Positions 26,684 to 45,022 of a stretch of DNA of 45,447 nucleotides are shown one piece after another (the first letter of the stretch is position 1; each line of letters begins with the position of its first letter). This DNA comes from Bacteroidaceae bacterium (GTDB lineage Bacteria > Bacteroidota > Bacteroidia > Bacteroidales > Bacteroidaceae): the NCBI GenBank assembly GCA_017547205.1, contig JAFYQH010000037.1:1-45447 (forward strand). Reading direction: 5' to 3'. The translations under genes and the position numbers were made by a program. The notes beneath the pieces were generated by a model. That model made no database searches. It was given only the letters and a program-made list of their open reading frames with translations, and was not told the origin of the DNA.

Positions 26684-29600
26684 TTACTTGAGAAGTGTTT
26701 TCTTTCCGTCAATTATGTACAAGCCCTTTGTGGGGTTCTCTACTTTGCGACCCTGAAGGTCATAGATACCTTCTGTTTTGCCGTTTTCAGTTCTCACTTC
26801 GTCAATGCCGGTTTCAATATCTACATTTGACTTCTCGAATGTCCATACGCTGCCGCCCCATGTGTATGGCTTTGTAAGTACATAGTTCCATGCAGTCGGG
26901 TTTATGTACCATCCTGATGAACCATTGCCACTGACAATGCCAATGCCTTTGTTGCCCTGGTCTGTGGTTGTCTCCTTTAGAGTCCAGTTGTAATCACGGC
27001 CTACCATGACGGTCTGGTCGTCGGCGTTGCTGGCAATGTATGCCGACTGTCCATTAGCCTTGTTGTAGATGCAAACGGTGCCGTCACTGTTCTTTACCAG
27101 GCTCCAGAGGAAATTGTCGCCGGTAGCCTTGTTCTTCGGCTCAACCTTGTTGTTGCTGCTGTTGAATGCGGCATAATAGTTTGTGAAATATCCGTTGCGT
27201 ATATAATAGTATGCGTTTGTGTCAAGCGCGTCGGCAAGCGATGTGCGCGGCATCATCATGAACTGGTGGTAGAGTGCGACGTACGCATTGTACTGTTCCT
27301 CGGTTACCGCTCCGGCCTCTACAGCGTCGGTTGCTGGGGTAATGACGCTGTTCTGGAGGTAATCTAGTGCCTCTTGTGTTGGCTCTCCCAATTTACCCGG
27401 CTTCGCCTTTATGATGATGATCTCGCACTTCTTTACAAGACCTGCAAGCTGTGCGGTGAAGTCGACTACTTCAACGATTCTCCAAGTACCGTTGTAGCAC
27501 AATGCAGCCTCGTCCTTTGCATATACGTCGCCCGAAACCTCTGCGCTCAGACGCTTTACGCTGCCTGTAACAGCTGCATTATAGCCCTCAACAGCAGAGA
27601 TCGTTACTGCACCGGGAACGTATGTGAAGTTTCTTGTTGCTATTGTAGCCTTGTCGATTCTTACGGCAGTACCTGCATCGGTCATCTGTACTGCAGTGTT
27701 GTAGGATGTCATCGCAATCTGTTTGCCGCTGTAGAGGTTCTTCATTATATAACCGCCTGTTGTGGGAATGAACTGCCACAACTCCTCGGGCTCGGTCTGC
27801 GGTGTGTAGTGGAAACGTACACCGTTGCCGTTCTGGTACATTGTAGAGCCTTCGTACTGGCGCTTGTAGTATGTCGATGCCGATACAATCTGGTATGTCT
27901 TGCCTTCCTGTGGCTGAACAATCTCAGCGCCCTTGAATGCGTTGATAGCTGCATTCAGTGCTGTCGCGTCGTCACCGTCAACTGCATCAAGTGTAGCCTG
28001 CAATGCGTCATAAACCTCTGCTACGGGATAGCCTACGCCACCACGGATGCTGTTGGCAAGAAGCTCTTCGGCCTCCATGACAGCGGCTTCGATAGCAGTG
28101 TATTCCTTTGGCTCTATGTAGTGCTTTGCGTATGTGTAGCCAAGATAGTCAAGAATTTCATCGTGGCTCTGCAGGCGGTTGTAGAAACCGGCCCAGTTCT
28201 TCTTGCTTACATGCAACCAACCTACTTCGGCAAGTGCAAGCATACGGGGTAGAAGCTGGTACTCAAGTTCCTCTCCATCGTTGAGTGTCTCGGCCCACAG
28301 GTTACACTGCGCACCCCAGCAGAAATCCTCTTTGCCTTCGAGACTTGTCAATGGGTTTAGAGAATATACCCTGTCAATTGTATTTACCCAAGTGTCGCCC
28401 CAACCTCCATAGTATGGCTCGTCAACGAGTGTCTGGTTTGCAGGGACCTGCATGAAGTCGATATAAACATGTGAATATGGGCAGAGAATGCTGTTGAAAC
28501 CCAGGTCGGCAGCCTGTTTCGCATATTTCGCGCCACCGTCATTCCATGCCATGATTACGGGCTTTACCTTGTTATTGGTGTTCCAGTTCTTGAGAACCTC
28601 GTCCCAAACAACAATACCCTTGCTGTTCTTGCCAAGTGTCTTGAGGTATGCGCCAAGTTCTTCAACTAACCATGATTGCAGCTCGTGTACGCCAGCAAGG
28701 CCCTCTTCCTGTACGCGGCGTAAGCAGTCTGCGTTTGTCTCCCACTGTTCGGTGGGGCACTCGTCGCCACCCAGGTGTATGTATGGGAAGGGGAATATCT
28801 CGGCAACATTGCGCAGAACGCATTTCAGGAAGTCTACAACTTCGTCTTTACCAACGTTCAATACATCGTGTGATATACCTCCGGGGATTCGTACCGAATA
28901 CTCCTTGCTGGGGTCGCAGCTGAACTCTGGGTATGATGCCACTGCGGCAACCATGTGTCCGGGGAGGTCAATCTCGGGGAGAATGTCAATGTTGCGTTCA
29001 GTTGCGTATGCCACTATTTCGCGAAGGTCATCCTGTGAGAACCACATTCCACGACCGTATTCTGTATCGTCGAAGAACTGAGCTCCGTCACCGTTGCTTG
29101 TGAAAGAACCTGCACGGATAGAGCCTATTTCTGTCAGTTTCGGATATTCGGGGATTTCGATACGCCAGCCCTGGTCGTCGGTAAGGTGCCAGTGCAGACG
29201 GTTCATCTTGTAGAGTGACATGATGTCAAGCACTCTCTTTACCTGGTCTTTGTCGAAGAAGTGGCGTGCAACGTCCATCATGAAACCACGGTGCTGGAAC
29301 TGCGGGTGGTCCTTGATTGCAACAACCGGAATGCTCCATTCGATGCTGCACAACTCTTTTGCGAAGAACTCGCGTGGCAGCAGCTGTGTCAGTGTCTGCA
29401 ATGCATAGAACTCACCGCCGAAGTCCTTGGCCTTTATCTCAATCCCGTTTTCATTTACATTGAGTGTATAACCATCCTCGTTGAGCTCGCTGTCGGTTCC
29501 GAACCAAATTTCACCGGCAGCAGCTGCGCCTTCGGCCTTCTTCACGGCAAGCTCAATGCCAGCCGATTTCTTCAGTTGGGCAGCGAAACTCTCTGCATGG

Positions 29601-30220
29601 CCTTTCATCTCGTCGCTGTTGTATGCTATTGCATTCAGCTTTGTGAGGTCGAATGTGGTTTCGCCAATTGTGATTTCCTGTGGGTAAGGTATGAGTGTCA
29701 CCTTGCTCATGTTTTCGAACGCGCTTGCGTCCACGAACTTAACGGGGTTGTTCTGGTCGCCCTTGTTCCAGAGACCTACGCATGCGCGTGAGTCACCGGG
29801 GCCTCCCCAAAGGTTCATTGAGACCCCAGTGTTGCCTTTGGGCTGAATCTCATAACCGCCTATACTGTGTGTTGTCTTATTGATGAAGAATTTGCTCACG
29901 CCGCTTGGCGATGTGGCTGCGTTCACCATTTGGTTGGTTGCAGCGGAATTCACGTAAAGAGTGTATCCCTTCTTGTTTGTGAAAGTGTAACCGTCGGTGG
30001 CGTTACCGGTGATTTTCCACAACTGAGCGTTGCTACCCAATGCACTGCCGATGGTAATCTGTGTGCCCGAAGTGTTAGCCGTCAATGCGTCTCCACCATT
30101 CGAGAACTGGATGAGATACCACTTTGTGTCCTCATCGGTGCTGATTTCAGGGAAAGCCTGCGAGAATGTGTTTGCAAGACCCATTGTCATGCAAATCAAT
30201 GCAAAAAGAATCCGTTTCAT
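26684..30220 (-). CDS. Secreted GH20 beta-N-acetylhexosaminidase with lectin-like and T9SS sorting domains
   Basis: The 1178-residue enzyme is predicted to remove terminal beta-linked GlcNAc or GalNAc. Order of parts: signal peptide (1 to about 22); a lectin-like beta domain (about 25-165, KWYLIQFSNGGDALTANTSG); a GH20b domain (about 175-300, LIPYPQEITIG); the GH20 barrel (about 310-720) with catalytic D486-E487 in HLGGDECP; a helical linker; a second lectin-like domain (about 800-930); another helical stretch; a third lectin-like domain (about 1010-1115); and a C-terminal T9SS-type sorting tail (IYDLQGRKVENPTKGLYIIDGKK). The start at 30220 begins the signal peptide; a longer frame to 30262 adds non-signal residues. 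It is divergent from the GH2 gene, with a shared 222-bp intergenic region. No SusCD pair is adjacent. Confidence 0.93.
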   Translation of the reverse strand: MKRILFALICMTMGLANTFSQAFPEISTDEDTKWYLIQFSNGGDALTANTSGTQITIGSALGSNAQLWKITGNATDGYTFTNKKGYTLYVNSAATNQMVNAATSPSGVSKFFINKTTHSIGGYEIQPKGNTGVSMNLWGGPGDSRACVGLWNKGDQNNPVKFVDASAFENMSKVTLIPYPQEITIGETTFDLTKLNAIAYNSDEMKGHAESFAAQLKKSAGIELAVKKAEGAAAAGEIWFGTDSELNEDGYTLNVNENGIEIKAKDFGGEFYALQTLTQLLPREFFAKELCSIEWSIPVVAIKDHPQFQHRGFMMDVARHFFDKDQVKRVLDIMSLYKMNRLHWHLTDDQGWRIEIPEYPKLTEIGSIRAGSFTSNGDGAQFFDDTEYGRGMWFSQDDLREIVAYATERNIDILPEIDLPGHMVAAVASYPEFSCDPSKEYSVRIPGGISHDVLNVGKDEVVDFLKCVLRNVAEIFPFPYIHLGGDECPTEQWETNADCLRRVQEEGLAGVHELQSWLVEELGAYLKTLGKNSKGIVVWDEVLKNWNTNNKVKPVIMAWNDGGAKYAKQAADLGFNSILCPYSHVYIDFMQVPANQTLVDEPYYGGWGDTWVNTIDRVYSLNPLTSLEGKEDFCWGAQCNLWAETLNDGEELEYQLLPRMLALAEVGWLHVSKKNWAGFYNRLQSHDEILDYLGYTYAKHYIEPKEYTAIEAAVMEAEELLANSIRGGVGYPVAEVYDALQATLDAVDGDDATALNAAINAFKGAEIVQPQEGKTYQIVSASTYYKRQYEGSTMYQNGNGVRFHYTPQTEPEELWQFIPTTGGYIMKNLYSGKQIAMTSYNTAVQMTDAGTAVRIDKATIATRNFTYVPGAVTISAVEGYNAAVTGSVKRLSAEVSGDVYAKDEAALCYNGTWRIVEVVDFTAQLAGLVKKCEIIIIKAKPGKLGEPTQEALDYLQNSVITPATDAVEAGAVTEEQYNAYVALYHQFMMMPRTSLADALDTNAYYYIRNGYFTNYYAAFNSSNNKVEPKNKATGDNFLWSLVKNSDGTVCIYNKANGQSAYIASNADDQTVMVGRDYNWTLKETTTDQGNKGIGIVSGNGSSGWYINPTAWNYVLTKPYTWGGSVWTFEKSNVDIETGIDEVRTENGKTEGIYDLQGRKVENPTKGLYIIDGKKTLLK

Positions 30221-30259
30221 GTATGACTGTTGTTTATAAAAATAAAAATTTATTAAATG

Positions 30260-30267
30260 CAAATATA
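30260..30267 (-). promoter_or_regulatory. Predicted -7 promoter element of the GH20 gene
   Basis: TATATTTG on the minus strand, 39 nt before the start at 30220. The -33 box is not recognisable. Confidence 0.5.
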
Positions 30268-30424: not shown

Positions 30425-34753
<4,329 letters not shown>

Positions 34754-40825: not shown

Positions 40826-43800
40826 ATGAAAGCAAGATTGTGTACTTTACTGCTTCTTTTGGCTTTGCCTTTTGCAGCAATGGCCGATAATCCGCCTCTT
40901 ATGGGCTGGAGTTCATGGAATACCTATGGTTTCCAAATCAACGATTCTGTTATCCAGGCCCAGGCCGATGCCATGGTGAAACTTGGGTTCAAGGATTGTG
41001 GCTACAACCACATAAACATTGACGACGGTTTCTTTGGCGGACGTGATGCCGAGGGCAACCTTCTCATTCACCCCGAGCGCTTTCCCAATGGTTTGCGCGG
41101 GCTTGTGGATTACATCCACAACAAGGGACTAAAGGCTGGTATCTACAGCGATGCAGGTCGCAATACTTGTGCATCCTATTGGGGTAATCCTAAGGATGAG
41201 ATAGGCCGAGGTGTGGGACTCTATGGCCACGATGCTGCCGATTTTGACCTTTATTTCAACCCCGACAAACTCAATTTTGACTTTATAAAAATCGACTACT
41301 GCGGTGCCGATGCAGGCAACAATGACGAGGGACTTGACCTTGATGTGGAACAGCGCTACAAGGAGATAGCCGCTGCTATCAAGGCTGTAGGACGTGACGA
41401 CATAACATGGAACATCTGCCGCTGGGCCTTCCCCGGCACATGGGCGTGTGAAATTGCCGATTCATGGCGTACAACAGAGGATATATACCTCGGTTGGGAA
41501 TCGGTAAAGAGTATCATCAACCAGAGTCTATACCTGTCGGCATACACAACATACGGCCACTACAACGACATGGATATGCTCGAGGTTGGTCGTGGACTCT
41601 CCGAAGAGGAGGATAAGACCCACTTTGGCATGTGGTGCATCATGAGTTCACCGCTGCTTATCGGCTGTGATATGAACGATATCAAGGGCAATGCTCTTGA
41701 ACTGATGCAGAACAAGGAACTGATTGCCCTAAACCAGAATGCTCTAGGTCTGCAGGCCTATGTGGTGAAACGTGATAATGGCGGATATGTACTTGTTAAG
41801 GATATCGAGGAAAAATATGGAACAAAGCGTGCTGTGGCATTCTATAACCCCACAAATTCTGCTATTGACATGAGCATCAGTTTCTCACAGCTAGATCTTG
41901 CCGGTGAAGTAAAGGTGCGCGATCTTTTTGAGAAAAAGGATAAAGGTCTTTTTGAGGAGTCTTATTCGGTAACAGTTCCAGCCCATGGCACAAGAATATA
42001 CAGGCTTGAAGCAGAGGAGCGTCTTGAACGTAAAGTATACGAGGCCGAGACAGCTTGGTTGACCGACTATCAGGAGATTAAGAATAATGAGGTTTATGGA
42101 ACAGCTGTTTATGCCGAGAAGAATAACTGCTCAGGTGGTGTGGCTGTAGGTTGGCTTGGTAACCGTGACAGCAATGACCTTCAGTGGCGTAATGTCTACA
42201 GCCGCGAGGGTGGCGAGTATACCTTGCGTGTATATTTTATTACCGGTGAAAACCGTACAATGAAGTTGAGTGTCAACGGTGGCGAGCCTCAGATCTATAC
42301 CGGAAATTCAGGTGGTTGGGGTACAGTCGGTTCAACTGAATTTGATGTAGTGCTTGAGAAGGGCGAGAATGTAGTGCGTCTCTTCAACGAGAGCGGATAC
42401 ATGGGTGACATTGACAAGATGGAACTGGTGAACAAGAATGCACCCGTTGTTATCGAGGATTATCCTATTATATTTGACAAGAACCAGGGTTATACTCACG
42501 GTAGCCGCCGTCTGAATAGTGTTTCGCTTGGTGGCCAGACATTGCATTTGCCGACTCCTTTGAAGGTTTACAGCAAGATAGACAACCCTACTTTCCAGGC
42601 AAAGGCCGGTGAGACCGTAACCCCTTCATTTGGTTTTGCAGGTACCTGGATGAACGGTTTTGTATATATCGACCGCGGACAGGATGGCGCTTTTGAAGCG
42701 AAACTGAATGCCGACGGTTCAATCCCCACCGGTAGTGATATCATGGCTTTCTCTTATGCCGAGCCTACATTGGGTTCTGGTACGGGTTACAATAGTAAGG
42801 GTGAGAGAGTGACAAATACGAACGTTCTCAACCCGCCGGCATTCACAATCCCGGCAGACATGGCTCCCGGTTTCTATCGCATGCGTTACAAGGTCGACTG
42901 GGCATCAATTGACCCTGCAGGCCGTGCCGAGGATGGCAACGGTATATTGCAGAACGGTGGTGCCATATGCGATGTAGTGCTGAATGTACACAACGACAAT
43001 GGTGCGCTTGAGGTTGTTGCCGAGAATGGTGCATTGCTTGCTGCCGACGGCTCGGCTTTGCCCGAAACCGTAGCGTTTGGCAAGGAACTTGAACTGAAGG
43101 CTGTGCCCGCTGATGGTTATATTCTCGATTATGTTAAAGTACTTCACGGCCACAATTTCAATGGCAATGAGATTCTGCATGGTGTCAAGCAGTACAGCGA
43201 AGAGTTCTATCCTGGCTATAACGTGAAAGATGGAGTCCTTGTTCTCCCGGCTGAGTATGTCGACGGTGATGTTATGTTGACTGCGTCTTTTGTAAAAGCA
43301 GGCAATAGTAACGGAGGTGACGGCTATGCACTCTCATTTGACAAGGATGCAGCTGCAACAAATATAGCTAATACCATTTCAGTAAATGGTGTTTCATTTG
43401 ATGTCAGTGGCAACAAGGCATATTACGACTTTACATCATCACCTGTTGTAATGTACGATACAAGAGCATTAAATGTCTCGTTTGCTGCCTCAACAGGCAA
43501 GAATGCCTATTTGTATGTCGACTTCAGCAATGACGGACGTTTTACAGCATTGTTGGGTGACGATGGCAAGCCTGCACTCTCGAGCGAGCTTGTTGCACTT
43601 GATGGTGAGTTGGCGTGTGAAATTCCGGGATTGCTTCCCGACGGCATCTATCGTGTACGCATAAAGGTGGATACAGACAATATCAACCCCGATGGCTCGG
43701 ACAATATAGTTGCCGATGGTGGTTACATTGCCGATTTCTTGTTGAATGTTCTGAGCGGTAACAGAAGCCTTTTGCAGTACACAACCAACGGAAGTATTGA

Positions 43801-45022
43801 CGGAAAAGGATATACAGCGTTACCTTTGATAGTTACCCCGGGACAAGGCTTCGACGTAGTGCTACGCGGTGCTCCAGGCTTTGCTGCCGACAAGCTCTTG
43901 GTTCGTCACGGACACAACCTGAACGGTGAGCAATATATTAACGGCAACCGTCAGTGGATCGAGACACATCTTGAGGCAACGTCCGGCGTAGCTGTTGTTG
44001 ATGCCGCACTTGTCGATGGTGACGTTGCACTTTATGCCGACTTTGATTCCGAGGAGGGTAACGAGTGGCGTCTTGTCTTCAGCGATGAATTCAATGCCGA
44101 GGATATGTCACAGCCTGTTGACGAGAAGTGGATGCGCTGCCAGCGTTATGGCGCTACATGGAACCGTTGGCTCAGCGACAGCAAGGAGGTTATCTACCTG
44201 CAGGGGGGCGACCTCGTTGCTCGCGCCATACCTAACCCCGATCAGGCGAGCGACCCAGTTCCAATGATTACCGGCGGTATAAAGAGTAATAAACGTTTTG
44301 GCTTTACATATGGCTATGTCGAGGCTCGCATCAAGTCCAATCCCTGGACTGGTAACTTCCCCGCATTCTGGATGATGCCCGAGGACCAGAGTGCTGGCTG
44401 GCCCGATTGTGGCGAGATTGACATTTGGGAGACCATTGACTCGCAGGAGCGCTCATGGCACACAGTACACAGCAACTGGACATACGACCTTGGAAATACA
44501 AATAATCCAAAATCAAGTTTCAATGTGGCAACATCGCACGACCGTTACCACACATACGGTTTGATGTGGGACGCGACATCATTGGTATGGTATGTCGACG
44601 GTAAGGAGGTTGGCCGCTATACAAAATCTACCAATCAGTCGCAACTGAACAATGGACAGTGGCCGTTTGATAAACATTTCCACCTGATTCTCAACCAGAG
44701 TGTAGGCAATAATGCATGGGCTGCTGATGCCGATGTTACACACACCTATGAGACTCGCTTCGATTGGGTACGCGTTTACCAGACCAACGGAATGGAAAAC
44801 ACTAATGGCACTGTAGGTATTGTAAATGTCAATAGCGATGCAGGTGCCGATGTCTCTGCTGTCGACGGTGGTGTTGCAGTCAGCGTTTCAACCCCTAAGG
44901 ATATTGCTGTCTATGACATCACGGGCCGTAAGTTGGGTGAGGTTAATGTACACGATATATACACCTTCGCGCTTCCCAAGGGTATATATGTTGTAGAGGG
45001 TGTAAAGGTTTTTGTGAAGTAA
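40826..45022 (+). CDS. Secreted bifunctional GH27 alpha-galactosidase / GH16 endo-glycanase fusion with T9SS sorting tail
   Basis: The 1398-residue protein has two glycosidase domains. Order: signal peptide (1 to about 20); GH27 barrel (about 21-300) with nucleophile D157 in KIDYCG and acid/base in NDMDMLEVG (D248 to D250); its beta C-terminal domain (about 305-395); a CBM6/35-like domain (about 400-535, VYEAETAWLTDY); two related modules (about 540-828 and 833-1075), each with a GEVED-like beta-sandwich and a segment ending HGHN[FL]NG..; a GH16 domain (about 1080-1325) with catalytic E1197, D1199 and E1202 in CGEIDIWE; and a T9SS-type tail (VAVYDITGRKL ... LPKGIYVVEGVKV). GH27 enzymes remove alpha-galactose (or beta-L-arabinopyranose); GH16 enzymes cut beta-glucans or beta-galactans internally, and some attack mucin O-glycans. 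The GWPDCGEIDIWE motif resembles the laminarinase-like GH16 subgroup. Both catalytic sites look intact. Confidence 0.93.
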   Translation: MKARLCTLLLLLALPFAAMADNPPLMGWSSWNTYGFQINDSVIQAQADAMVKLGFKDCGYNHINIDDGFFGGRDAEGNLLIHPERFPNGLRGLVDYIHNKGLKAGIYSDAGRNTCASYWGNPKDEIGRGVGLYGHDAADFDLYFNPDKLNFDFIKIDYCGADAGNNDEGLDLDVEQRYKEIAAAIKAVGRDDITWNICRWAFPGTWACEIADSWRTTEDIYLGWESVKSIINQSLYLSAYTTYGHYNDMDMLEVGRGLSEEEDKTHFGMWCIMSSPLLIGCDMNDIKGNALELMQNKELIALNQNALGLQAYVVKRDNGGYVLVKDIEEKYGTKRAVAFYNPTNSAIDMSISFSQLDLAGEVKVRDLFEKKDKGLFEESYSVTVPAHGTRIYRLEAEERLERKVYEAETAWLTDYQEIKNNEVYGTAVYAEKNNCSGGVAVGWLGNRDSNDLQWRNVYSREGGEYTLRVYFITGENRTMKLSVNGGEPQIYTGNSGGWGTVGSTEFDVVLEKGENVVRLFNESGYMGDIDKMELVNKNAPVVIEDYPIIFDKNQGYTHGSRRLNSVSLGGQTLHLPTPLKVYSKIDNPTFQAKAGETVTPSFGFAGTWMNGFVYIDRGQDGAFEAKLNADGSIPTGSDIMAFSYAEPTLGSGTGYNSKGERVTNTNVLNPPAFTIPADMAPGFYRMRYKVDWASIDPAGRAEDGNGILQNGGAICDVVLNVHNDNGALEVVAENGALLAADGSALPETVAFGKELELKAVPADGYILDYVKVLHGHNFNGNEILHGVKQYSEEFYPGYNVKDGVLVLPAEYVDGDVMLTASFVKAGNSNGGDGYALSFDKDAAATNIANTISVNGVSFDVSGNKAYYDFTSSPVVMYDTRALNVSFAASTGKNAYLYVDFSNDGRFTALLGDDGKPALSSELVALDGELACEIPGLLPDGIYRVRIKVDTDNINPDGSDNIVADGGYIADFLLNVLSGNRSLLQYTTNGSIDGKGYTALPLIVTPGQGFDVVLRGAPGFAADKLLVRHGHNLNGEQYINGNRQWIETHLEATSGVAVVDAALVDGDVALYADFDSEEGNEWRLVFSDEFNAEDMSQPVDEKWMRCQRYGATWNRWLSDSKEVIYLQGGDLVARAIPNPDQASDPVPMITGGIKSNKRFGFTYGYVEARIKSNPWTGNFPAFWMMPEDQSAGWPDCGEIDIWETIDSQERSWHTVHSNWTYDLGNTNNPKSSFNVATSHDRYHTYGLMWDATSLVWYVDGKEVGRYTKSTNQSQLNNGQWPFDKHFHLILNQSVGNNAWAADADVTHTYETRFDWVRVYQTNGMENTNGTVGIVNVNSDAGADVSAVDGGVAVSVSTPKDIAVYDITGRKLGEVNVHDIYTFALPKGIYVVEGVKVFVK

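What the first reader, a model, noticed from the sequence alone, without database searches (positions are those of the whole stretch)
40826..45022. A single secreted protein joining GH27 and GH16 catalytic domains
Seen: one uninterrupted 1398-residue frame with a GH27 active site at D157 and D250 and a GH16 EIDIWE site at 1197-1202, plus a CBM6/35-like domain and a T9SS-type tail. Known: GH27 is an exo-acting alpha-galactosidase family, whereas GH16 is endo-acting on beta-glucans, beta-galactans and, in some gut bacteria, mucin O-glycans. I am not aware of this pairing as a described architecture. Inference: the enzyme could uncap alpha-galactose and then cut the exposed backbone of one glycan, for example alpha-Gal-capped poly-LacNAc mucin chains or an alpha-galactosylated algal or plant polymer. 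The nearby GH2 and GH20 genes favour a host-glycan target.
Basis: partly seen in the sequence, partly recalled or inferred. Interest (0 to 1): 0.72.

Follow-up and report, generated by a model that had tools for sequence, protein, structure and literature searches.

The report
Fused sugar-cap remover and chain cutter
A gut bacterium carries one secreted protein that joins an enzyme predicted to strip galactose caps with an enzyme predicted to cut the sugar chain beneath; the evidence points to host mucus sugars as the target, and some relatives join the same cutter to a different cap remover.

Summary
Window 40826-45022 (+) encodes 1398 aa: signal peptide, GH27, CBM35-like module, two GEVED-type modules, GH16, T9SS-like tail. 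One correction: the GH27 acid/base is D219, not D250. It is not a misassembly: 24 distinct proteins (window's included) have both domains in one frame, and both are under strong purifying selection. The fusion was seen in 19 of 37 genomes of one unnamed Bacteroidaceae genus; 21 of 22 named fused loci come from ruminant cecum, colon or rectum.

The GH16 groups with three crystallised mucin O-glycanases, apart from five glucanases (100/99). The same GH16 clade is fused to GH84 in 4, and lies beside GH29 or GH95 fucosidases in 15, of 40 relatives fetched. The genome has GH20, LacZ-type GH2, sialidase-type, GH123 and sulfatase genes, one GH43 and no GH51.

Best reading: an outer-surface, two-step host-glycan enzyme in which GH27 removes alpha-galactose caps and GH16 cuts the poly-LacNAc chain. 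Specificity is inferred, not measured. My searches of open papers found no description of this architecture. New variant of a known kind: known families, with different cap removers joined to one endo-cutter.

The parts
40826..45022 (+). Gene for the GH27-CBM35-GEVED-GEVED-GH16-tail protein, 1398 aa
   Evidence: homologues in one frame
40826..40885 (+). Signal peptide (aa 1-20, read by eye)
   Evidence: sequence; no signal-peptide program was run
40886..42013 (+). GH27 catalytic barrel and C-terminal beta domain (aa 21-396); D157 matches the rice nucleophile, D219 the acid/base
   Evidence: Pfam; PDB alignments; D157 in 71 of 72 rows (one gapped), D219 in 72 of 72
42038..42436 (+). CBM35-like module (aa 405-537), closest by sequence to the D-galactose-binding CBM35 2wz8
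42443..43303 (+). First GEVED-type beta module (aa 540-826)
   Evidence: matches three other frames of the genome at 33-42% identity; one region of L188 matches both modules
43304..44041 (+). Second GEVED-type module (aa 827-1072), Pfam GEVED at 894-973
44042..44791 (+). GH16 catalytic domain (aa 1073-1322); E1197, D1199, E1202; platforms W1182 and W1192; F1178; W1112
44792..45019 (+). T9SS type A-like C-terminal tail (aa 1323-1398)
   Evidence: TIGR04183 below cut-off; SprA in genome
30443..34753 (+). Neighbouring LacZ-type GH2 with RicinB lectin, 1436 aa; possibly linked in function, not part of the fusion
26684..30262 (-). Neighbouring GH20 with RicinB lectin, 1192 aa, divergent from the GH2

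Best explanation
A secreted, outer-surface, two-step host-glycan enzyme. The CBM35-like module tethers it to galactose-terminated glycans (inferred). GH27 hydrolyses terminal alpha-galactose, for example the Gal-alpha1,3-Gal cap that non-primate mammals make (inferred). GH16 cuts the poly-N-acetyllactosamine chain inside, as an endo-beta-1,4-galactosidase (O-glycanase) (inferred). The two GEVED-type modules act as spacer or adhesion modules and the T9SS-like tail puts it on the cell surface (inferred). Shown by tools: one conserved frame, intact catalytic residues, purifying selection on both domains, placement of the GH16 among O-glycanases, and a different N-terminal partner in some relatives.
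Confidence: 0.68

Rival explanations
1. Plant type II arabinogalactan enzyme: GH16 is an endo-beta-1,3-galactanase and GH27 an alpha-galactosidase or beta-L-arabinopyranosidase trimming side chains.
For: PMC7419316 places the Amuc_0724/0875 branch relatively close to endo-beta-1,3-galactanases; the best GH27 match is 3a21 (1.6e-66), recalled as a beta-L-arabinopyranosidase; the CBM35 also matches that of a fungal exo-beta-1,3-galactanase (6.6e-7).
Against: GH84 and GH20 partners have no known role on arabinogalactan (general knowledge). GH51 is in 0 of 34 genus genomes with this GH16 and there is one GH43 in the genome. The 3a21 pocket has E where this protein has D67.
Confidence: 0.12
2. Two enzymes for two different polymers: a beta-glucanase (fungal, cereal or algal glucan) tied to an alpha-galactosidase for raffinose-type sugars or galactomannan, joined only for shared secretion.
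Against: Tree placement away from 5 of 5 glucanase structures and W1112; partners GH84, GH29 and GH95; no GH26 or GH5 among the 25 most frequent of 117 families beside GH27-only genes (capped list).
Confidence: 0.12
3. Host glycan target, but the two domains do not act in sequence on one chain: GH27 works on glycolipids or alpha-Gal N-glycans while GH16 works on mucin poly-LacNAc.
For: Amuc_1187 GH27 also cleaves globotriose; the O-glycanases tolerate blood-group caps in most cases (PMC7419316), so uncapping may not be required. Overlaps with the best explanation in the target.
Against: GH27 and GH16 stay joined in 24 distinct proteins, with both domains under purifying selection, and in four relatives another glycan-end enzyme, GH84, stands in the place of GH27.
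Confidence: 0.2

Closest known systems
GH16 endo-O-glycanases (BACCAC_02680, BF4060, BACCAC_03717, Amuc_0724; Crouch et al. 2020, PMC7419316)
   Same: Same side of the GH16 tree as the three chains tested, ExDxxE site, W1182 and W1192 platforms, W1112; F1178 shared with BACCAC_02680 and BF4060
   Different: The solved chains are 241-324 aa, catalytic domains only; here the domain is the C-terminal part of a 1398-aa protein with a second catalytic domain, and 67 of 70 clade rows have W or F where most others have M before the second catalytic Glu
Akkermansia muciniphila GH27 Amuc_1187 (PMC11790493)
   Same: GH27 with activity on Gal-alpha1,3-Gal caps in a mucin degrader that also has GH16 O-glycanases
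   Different: A separate protein there; fused to GH16 here. No direct sequence comparison was made
GH27-CBM35-like proteins of gut and rumen Bacteroidales (frames of about 540-1140 aa)
   Same: N-terminal part, 59-87% GH27 identity
   Different: They lack the GEVED modules and the GH16
GH84-RicinB-GH16 proteins of related genomes (L152-L155)
   Same: C-terminal GH16 (77-79% identity) and the end of the second GEVED module
   Different: N-terminal part is GH84 plus lectin instead of GH27 plus CBM35
Mucinolysome of Limousia (PMC12997984, passages)
   Same: Several mucin-active enzymes brought together outside the cell
   Different: Assembled by cohesin-dockerin pairs, not by covalent fusion

Membership tests
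GH27 | GH27 (Melibiase_2) homology over the catalytic barrel | tested here: met
   153 bits against a cut-off of 23
GH27 | Two catalytic aspartates | tested here: met
   D157 and D219 align with rice D130 and D185; 71 of 72 (one gapped) and 72 of 72 rows
GH27 alpha-galactosidase rather than alpha-N-acetylgalactosaminidase | No small Ser/Ala pair at the 2-position pocket (criterion recalled) | tested here: inconclusive
   R199 stands where rice has E163, in 72 of 72 rows; no Ser there, but Arg is unlike the rice enzyme too. Activity untested
GH16 | GH16 homology and ExDxxE motif | tested here: met
   72.3 bits against 22; E1197, D1199, E1202 in 70 of 70 clade rows
GH16 subfamily 3 | Three tryptophans in finger 3 (as described in PMC7419316) | tested here: inconclusive
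   W1182 and W1192 present, first is F1178; BACCAC_02680 and BF4060 also have F there. No dbCAN subfamily model was available
GH16 endo-O-glycanase | Phylogenetic grouping with characterised O-glycanases | tested here: met
   100/99 split from 5 glucanases, on the side of 3 of 3 O-glycanase chains included; endo-beta-1,3-galactanases not included
GH16 endo-O-glycanase | Endo-beta-1,4-galactosidase activity on poly-LacNAc | not testable with these tools
   needs enzyme assay
CBM35 | CBM35 homology and fold | tested here: inconclusive
T9SS type A cargo | TIGR04183 above cut-off | tested here: not met
   17.7 bits against 23; 'T9SS-like' only
T9SS type A cargo | T9SS translocon in the genome | tested here: met
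   SprA_N 5e-196 on contig C37; other T9SS parts not searched

The most novel reading that the evidence does not exclude
An evolving kit of bifunctional surface O-glycanases: one poly-LacNAc endo-cutter module (GH16 with its T9SS-like tail and GEVED spacer) is recombined with different removers of the chain's terminal sugar (GH27 for alpha-Gal, GH84 for beta-GlcNAc, GH29/GH95 as gene neighbours for fucose). Each protein uncaps and cuts one class of host chain, and the alpha-Gal version suits hosts that make the Gal-alpha1,3-Gal cap.
Probability: 0.45. Interest if true: 0.72.

Novelty: new variant of a known kind. Interest (0 to 1): 0.57.

Why it matters
Mucus breakdown is usually described as a relay of separate exo- and endo-enzymes. 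Here the relay appears to be hard-wired into single proteins, with the endo-cutter kept and the cap remover differing between relatives. That makes the question of whether cap removal limits chain cutting directly testable with natural pairs (GH27-GH16, GH84-GH16, GEVED-GH16 alone). It also points to an apparent host-mucus specialist lineage in the ruminant hindgut.

Tried and rejected

Biases to know: one search kept the best 80 of 428 relatives; the 40 relatives were picked from the strong hits, most outside the window's genus; the partner panel (GH84, RicinB, GH29, GH95, GH35, GH2, GH20) was chosen after the first partners were seen; the GH51 contrast follows phylogeny and is not independent evidence per genome, and two of the ten genomes without the GH16 (G016, G022) have copies cut by contig ends. 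The counts 34 of 44, 19 of 37 and 21 of 22 were made by hand from the listings. For papers in searches I saw listings only, except those named with a passage or section.

Full report
WHAT IS THERE. The frame 40826-45022 (+) reads 1398 residues without a stop. In order: signal peptide (by eye), GH27 (Melibiase_2 1.2e-44, Melibiase_C 2.1e-12), CBM35-like module, two GEVED-type modules (Pfam GEVED 2.9e-9, best stretch in the second), GH16 (4.5e-20) and a T9SS-like tail (tail TIGR04183 E 0.0026, below cut-off). The window is the whole contig C25 of a 2.23-Mb, 83-contig genome of 83% completeness (contig length 45447); the gene stops 425 bases before its end. This is the only GH16 match found in the genome.

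CATALYTIC RESIDUES. The GH16 triad E1197, D1199, E1202 is present. Among 72 GH27 rows, D157 is kept in 71 (one row is gapped there) and D219 in 72; among 70 GH16 clade rows the triad is invariant. W28, W31, D66, D67, K155, C198 and W200 are the same in the rice enzyme, but R199 stands where rice has E163, in 72 of 72 rows. What that arginine does is unknown.

CONSERVATION OF THE FUSION. One search kept the best 80 of 428 related stretches in named genomes (77 loci); one search covered 61 genomes, 37 of them in the window's genus. Over 100 loci, 97 frames held GH27 or GH16: 36 with all modules (a few cut at the 5' end), 2 short fusions without the first GEVED module, 47 GH27-CBM alone, 8 GEVED-GEVED-GH16 without GH27, and 4 others cut by contig ends. 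After removing identical sequences, 24 of 80 are fusions, the window's included. In one search, 19 of 37 genus genomes hold both domains in one frame: G000, G003, G004, G008, G010, G011, G014, G015, G018, G020, G026, G028, G032, G033 and G036 over nearly the whole length, G027 cut by a contig end, and G019, G024 and G031 in the short form. Seven have the GEVED-GH16 form without GH27 in its frame (G001, G005, G009, G013, G017, G030, G035). I saw no GH27-GH16 fusion outside the genus, but outside it only the 61 genomes, the relatives fetched, and the frame lengths were looked at; named loci cannot be matched to the genus codes. Of the 22 fused loci with a named record (L005-L020, L022, L024, L026, L030, L031, L041), 21 titles name the cecum, colon or rectum of a ruminant; L015 names no organ. 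The place is partly conserved: a uvrB 83-92% identical to the window's lies upstream in 11 of 19 fused relatives examined. Purifying selection is strong on GH27 (median dN/dS 0.062, 22 pairs) and GH16 (0.069, 47 pairs), weaker on CBM (0.10), GEVED 1 (0.12), GEVED 2 (0.19) and tail (0.39). In the GH27 tree all 22 fused rows lie in one 31-row set (100/100) that also holds 8 solo rows and one cut row; the labels need 3 changes. GH27 and GH16 distances of the fused rows correlate (Mantel r 0.63, 0 of 2000 permutations as high).

THE PARTNERS. Forty relatives were fetched around strong hits of the family search. Four carry the GH16 (77-79% identity to the window's) on a GH84-RicinB protein: L152, L153 and L154 from another genus, L155 from the window's genus. 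L155 reads GH2 - GH84-GH16 - 431 aa - GH20; L152 has GH2 and L154 has GH20 beside it; L153 has GH35 beside it. In 13 of the 40 a GH29 gene lies directly before (12) or one gene before (1, L167) the GH16 gene; in 2 (L144, L150) a GH95 lies directly before it. The other 21 have no GH84, GH29 or GH95 fused or adjacent; neighbours of 19 of them are mixed (L161 and L170 were left out as near copies). In the window's own genome the slot behind a GH29 gene holds a 729-aa protein that matches the N-terminal and first GEVED modules of the sister protein but has no GH16, which suggests that the GH16 module changed address. In roe deer locus L020 the gene directly upstream of the fusion is a GH84-RicinB-GH2 protein of 2311 aa.

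THE GENOME. GH29 x3, two of them at contig ends; sulfatase x4; sialidase-type repeats in frames of 1126-1922 aa, four of five over the cut-off. The stretches taken show GDSL plus sialidase (1761 aa), GH20-RicinB plus BNR (1840 aa), GEVED-GH123-BNR (1670 aa) with a GH95 relative before it, and GH84-RicinB (970 aa). GH43: one hit, 57 bits. GH51: 6 of 44 genus genomes, none of the 34 in which this GH16 was found at E 1e-60. T9SS SprA present. Mucin-active families listed by PMC12997984 (introduction passage) include GH2, GH20, GH29, GH33, GH84 and GH95.

MECHANISM. Shown: architecture, conservation, intact sites, GH16 grouping, different partners in relatives. Inferred: alpha-galactosidase activity, O-glycanase activity, CBM binding to galactose ends, surface display, and that the two steps act on one chain. 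[quoted passage not shown] Bovine tissue carries alpha-Gal glycans (PMC7329767, abstract; pericardium, not gut). [quoted passage not shown]

NOVELTY. Searches for the pairing in open PMC papers (listings) showed no described GH27-GH16 or GH84-GH16 protein, for the joined names, and one search returned no paper. A sheep and goat compendium on mucin use (PMC11155115, passages only) lists families, not this architecture, in the passages seen. Subscription papers, CAZy and preprints were not searchable. Both families and both proposed activities are known; the covalent pairing with a partner that differs between relatives is the new part.

Noticed in passing
window 26684-30262 (-) and 30443-34753 (+): Divergent GH20-RicinB (1192 aa) and LacZ-type GH2-RicinB (1436 aa) genes, a beta-HexNAc and beta-Gal removing pair about 6 kb from the fusion gene.
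   Followed up: partly
L020:136-7068 (+): GH84-RicinB-GH2 in one 2311-aa frame directly upstream of the GH27-GH16 gene: two exo-enzymes that could peel LacNAc units, in one protein.
   Followed up: partly
L182:6900-12182 (own genome C8): 1761-aa frame with GDSL esterase (two stretches) and a sialidase, possibly de-acetylating and removing sialic acid in one protein.
   Followed up: no
L185:1661-7180 and L186:3914-8923 (own genome C53, C13): GH20-RicinB-BNR (1840 aa) and GEVED-GH123-BNR (1670 aa, after a GH95 relative of 1238 aa): more multi-catalytic candidates.
   Followed up: no
L184:326-6091 (own genome C12): 1922-aa frame with a C10 peptidase domain, InlB-type repeats and sialidase-type repeats.
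   Followed up: no
L188:1233-3419 (own genome C23): 729-aa protein behind a GH29 gene that matches the N-terminal and first GEVED modules of the sister X-GEVED-GEVED-GH16 proteins but lacks the GH16; a different C-terminal part follows.
   Followed up: partly
window 41420-41422 (R199 of the fusion protein): Arginine invariant in 72 of 72 GH27 relatives at the position that is Glu in the rice alpha-galactosidase; role unknown.
   Followed up: partly
genus genomes G002, G012, G021, G025, G029, G643: The six genus genomes with GH51 are among the ten in which this GH16 was not found; possibly a separate plant-feeding branch.
   Followed up: partly
L040, L042, L046, L047, L049, L050, L058, L077: GH27-CBM proteins of 900-1139 aa with a C-terminal extension; the three scanned (L040, L049, L058) gave no Pfam hit in that part at E 0.001.
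   Followed up: no
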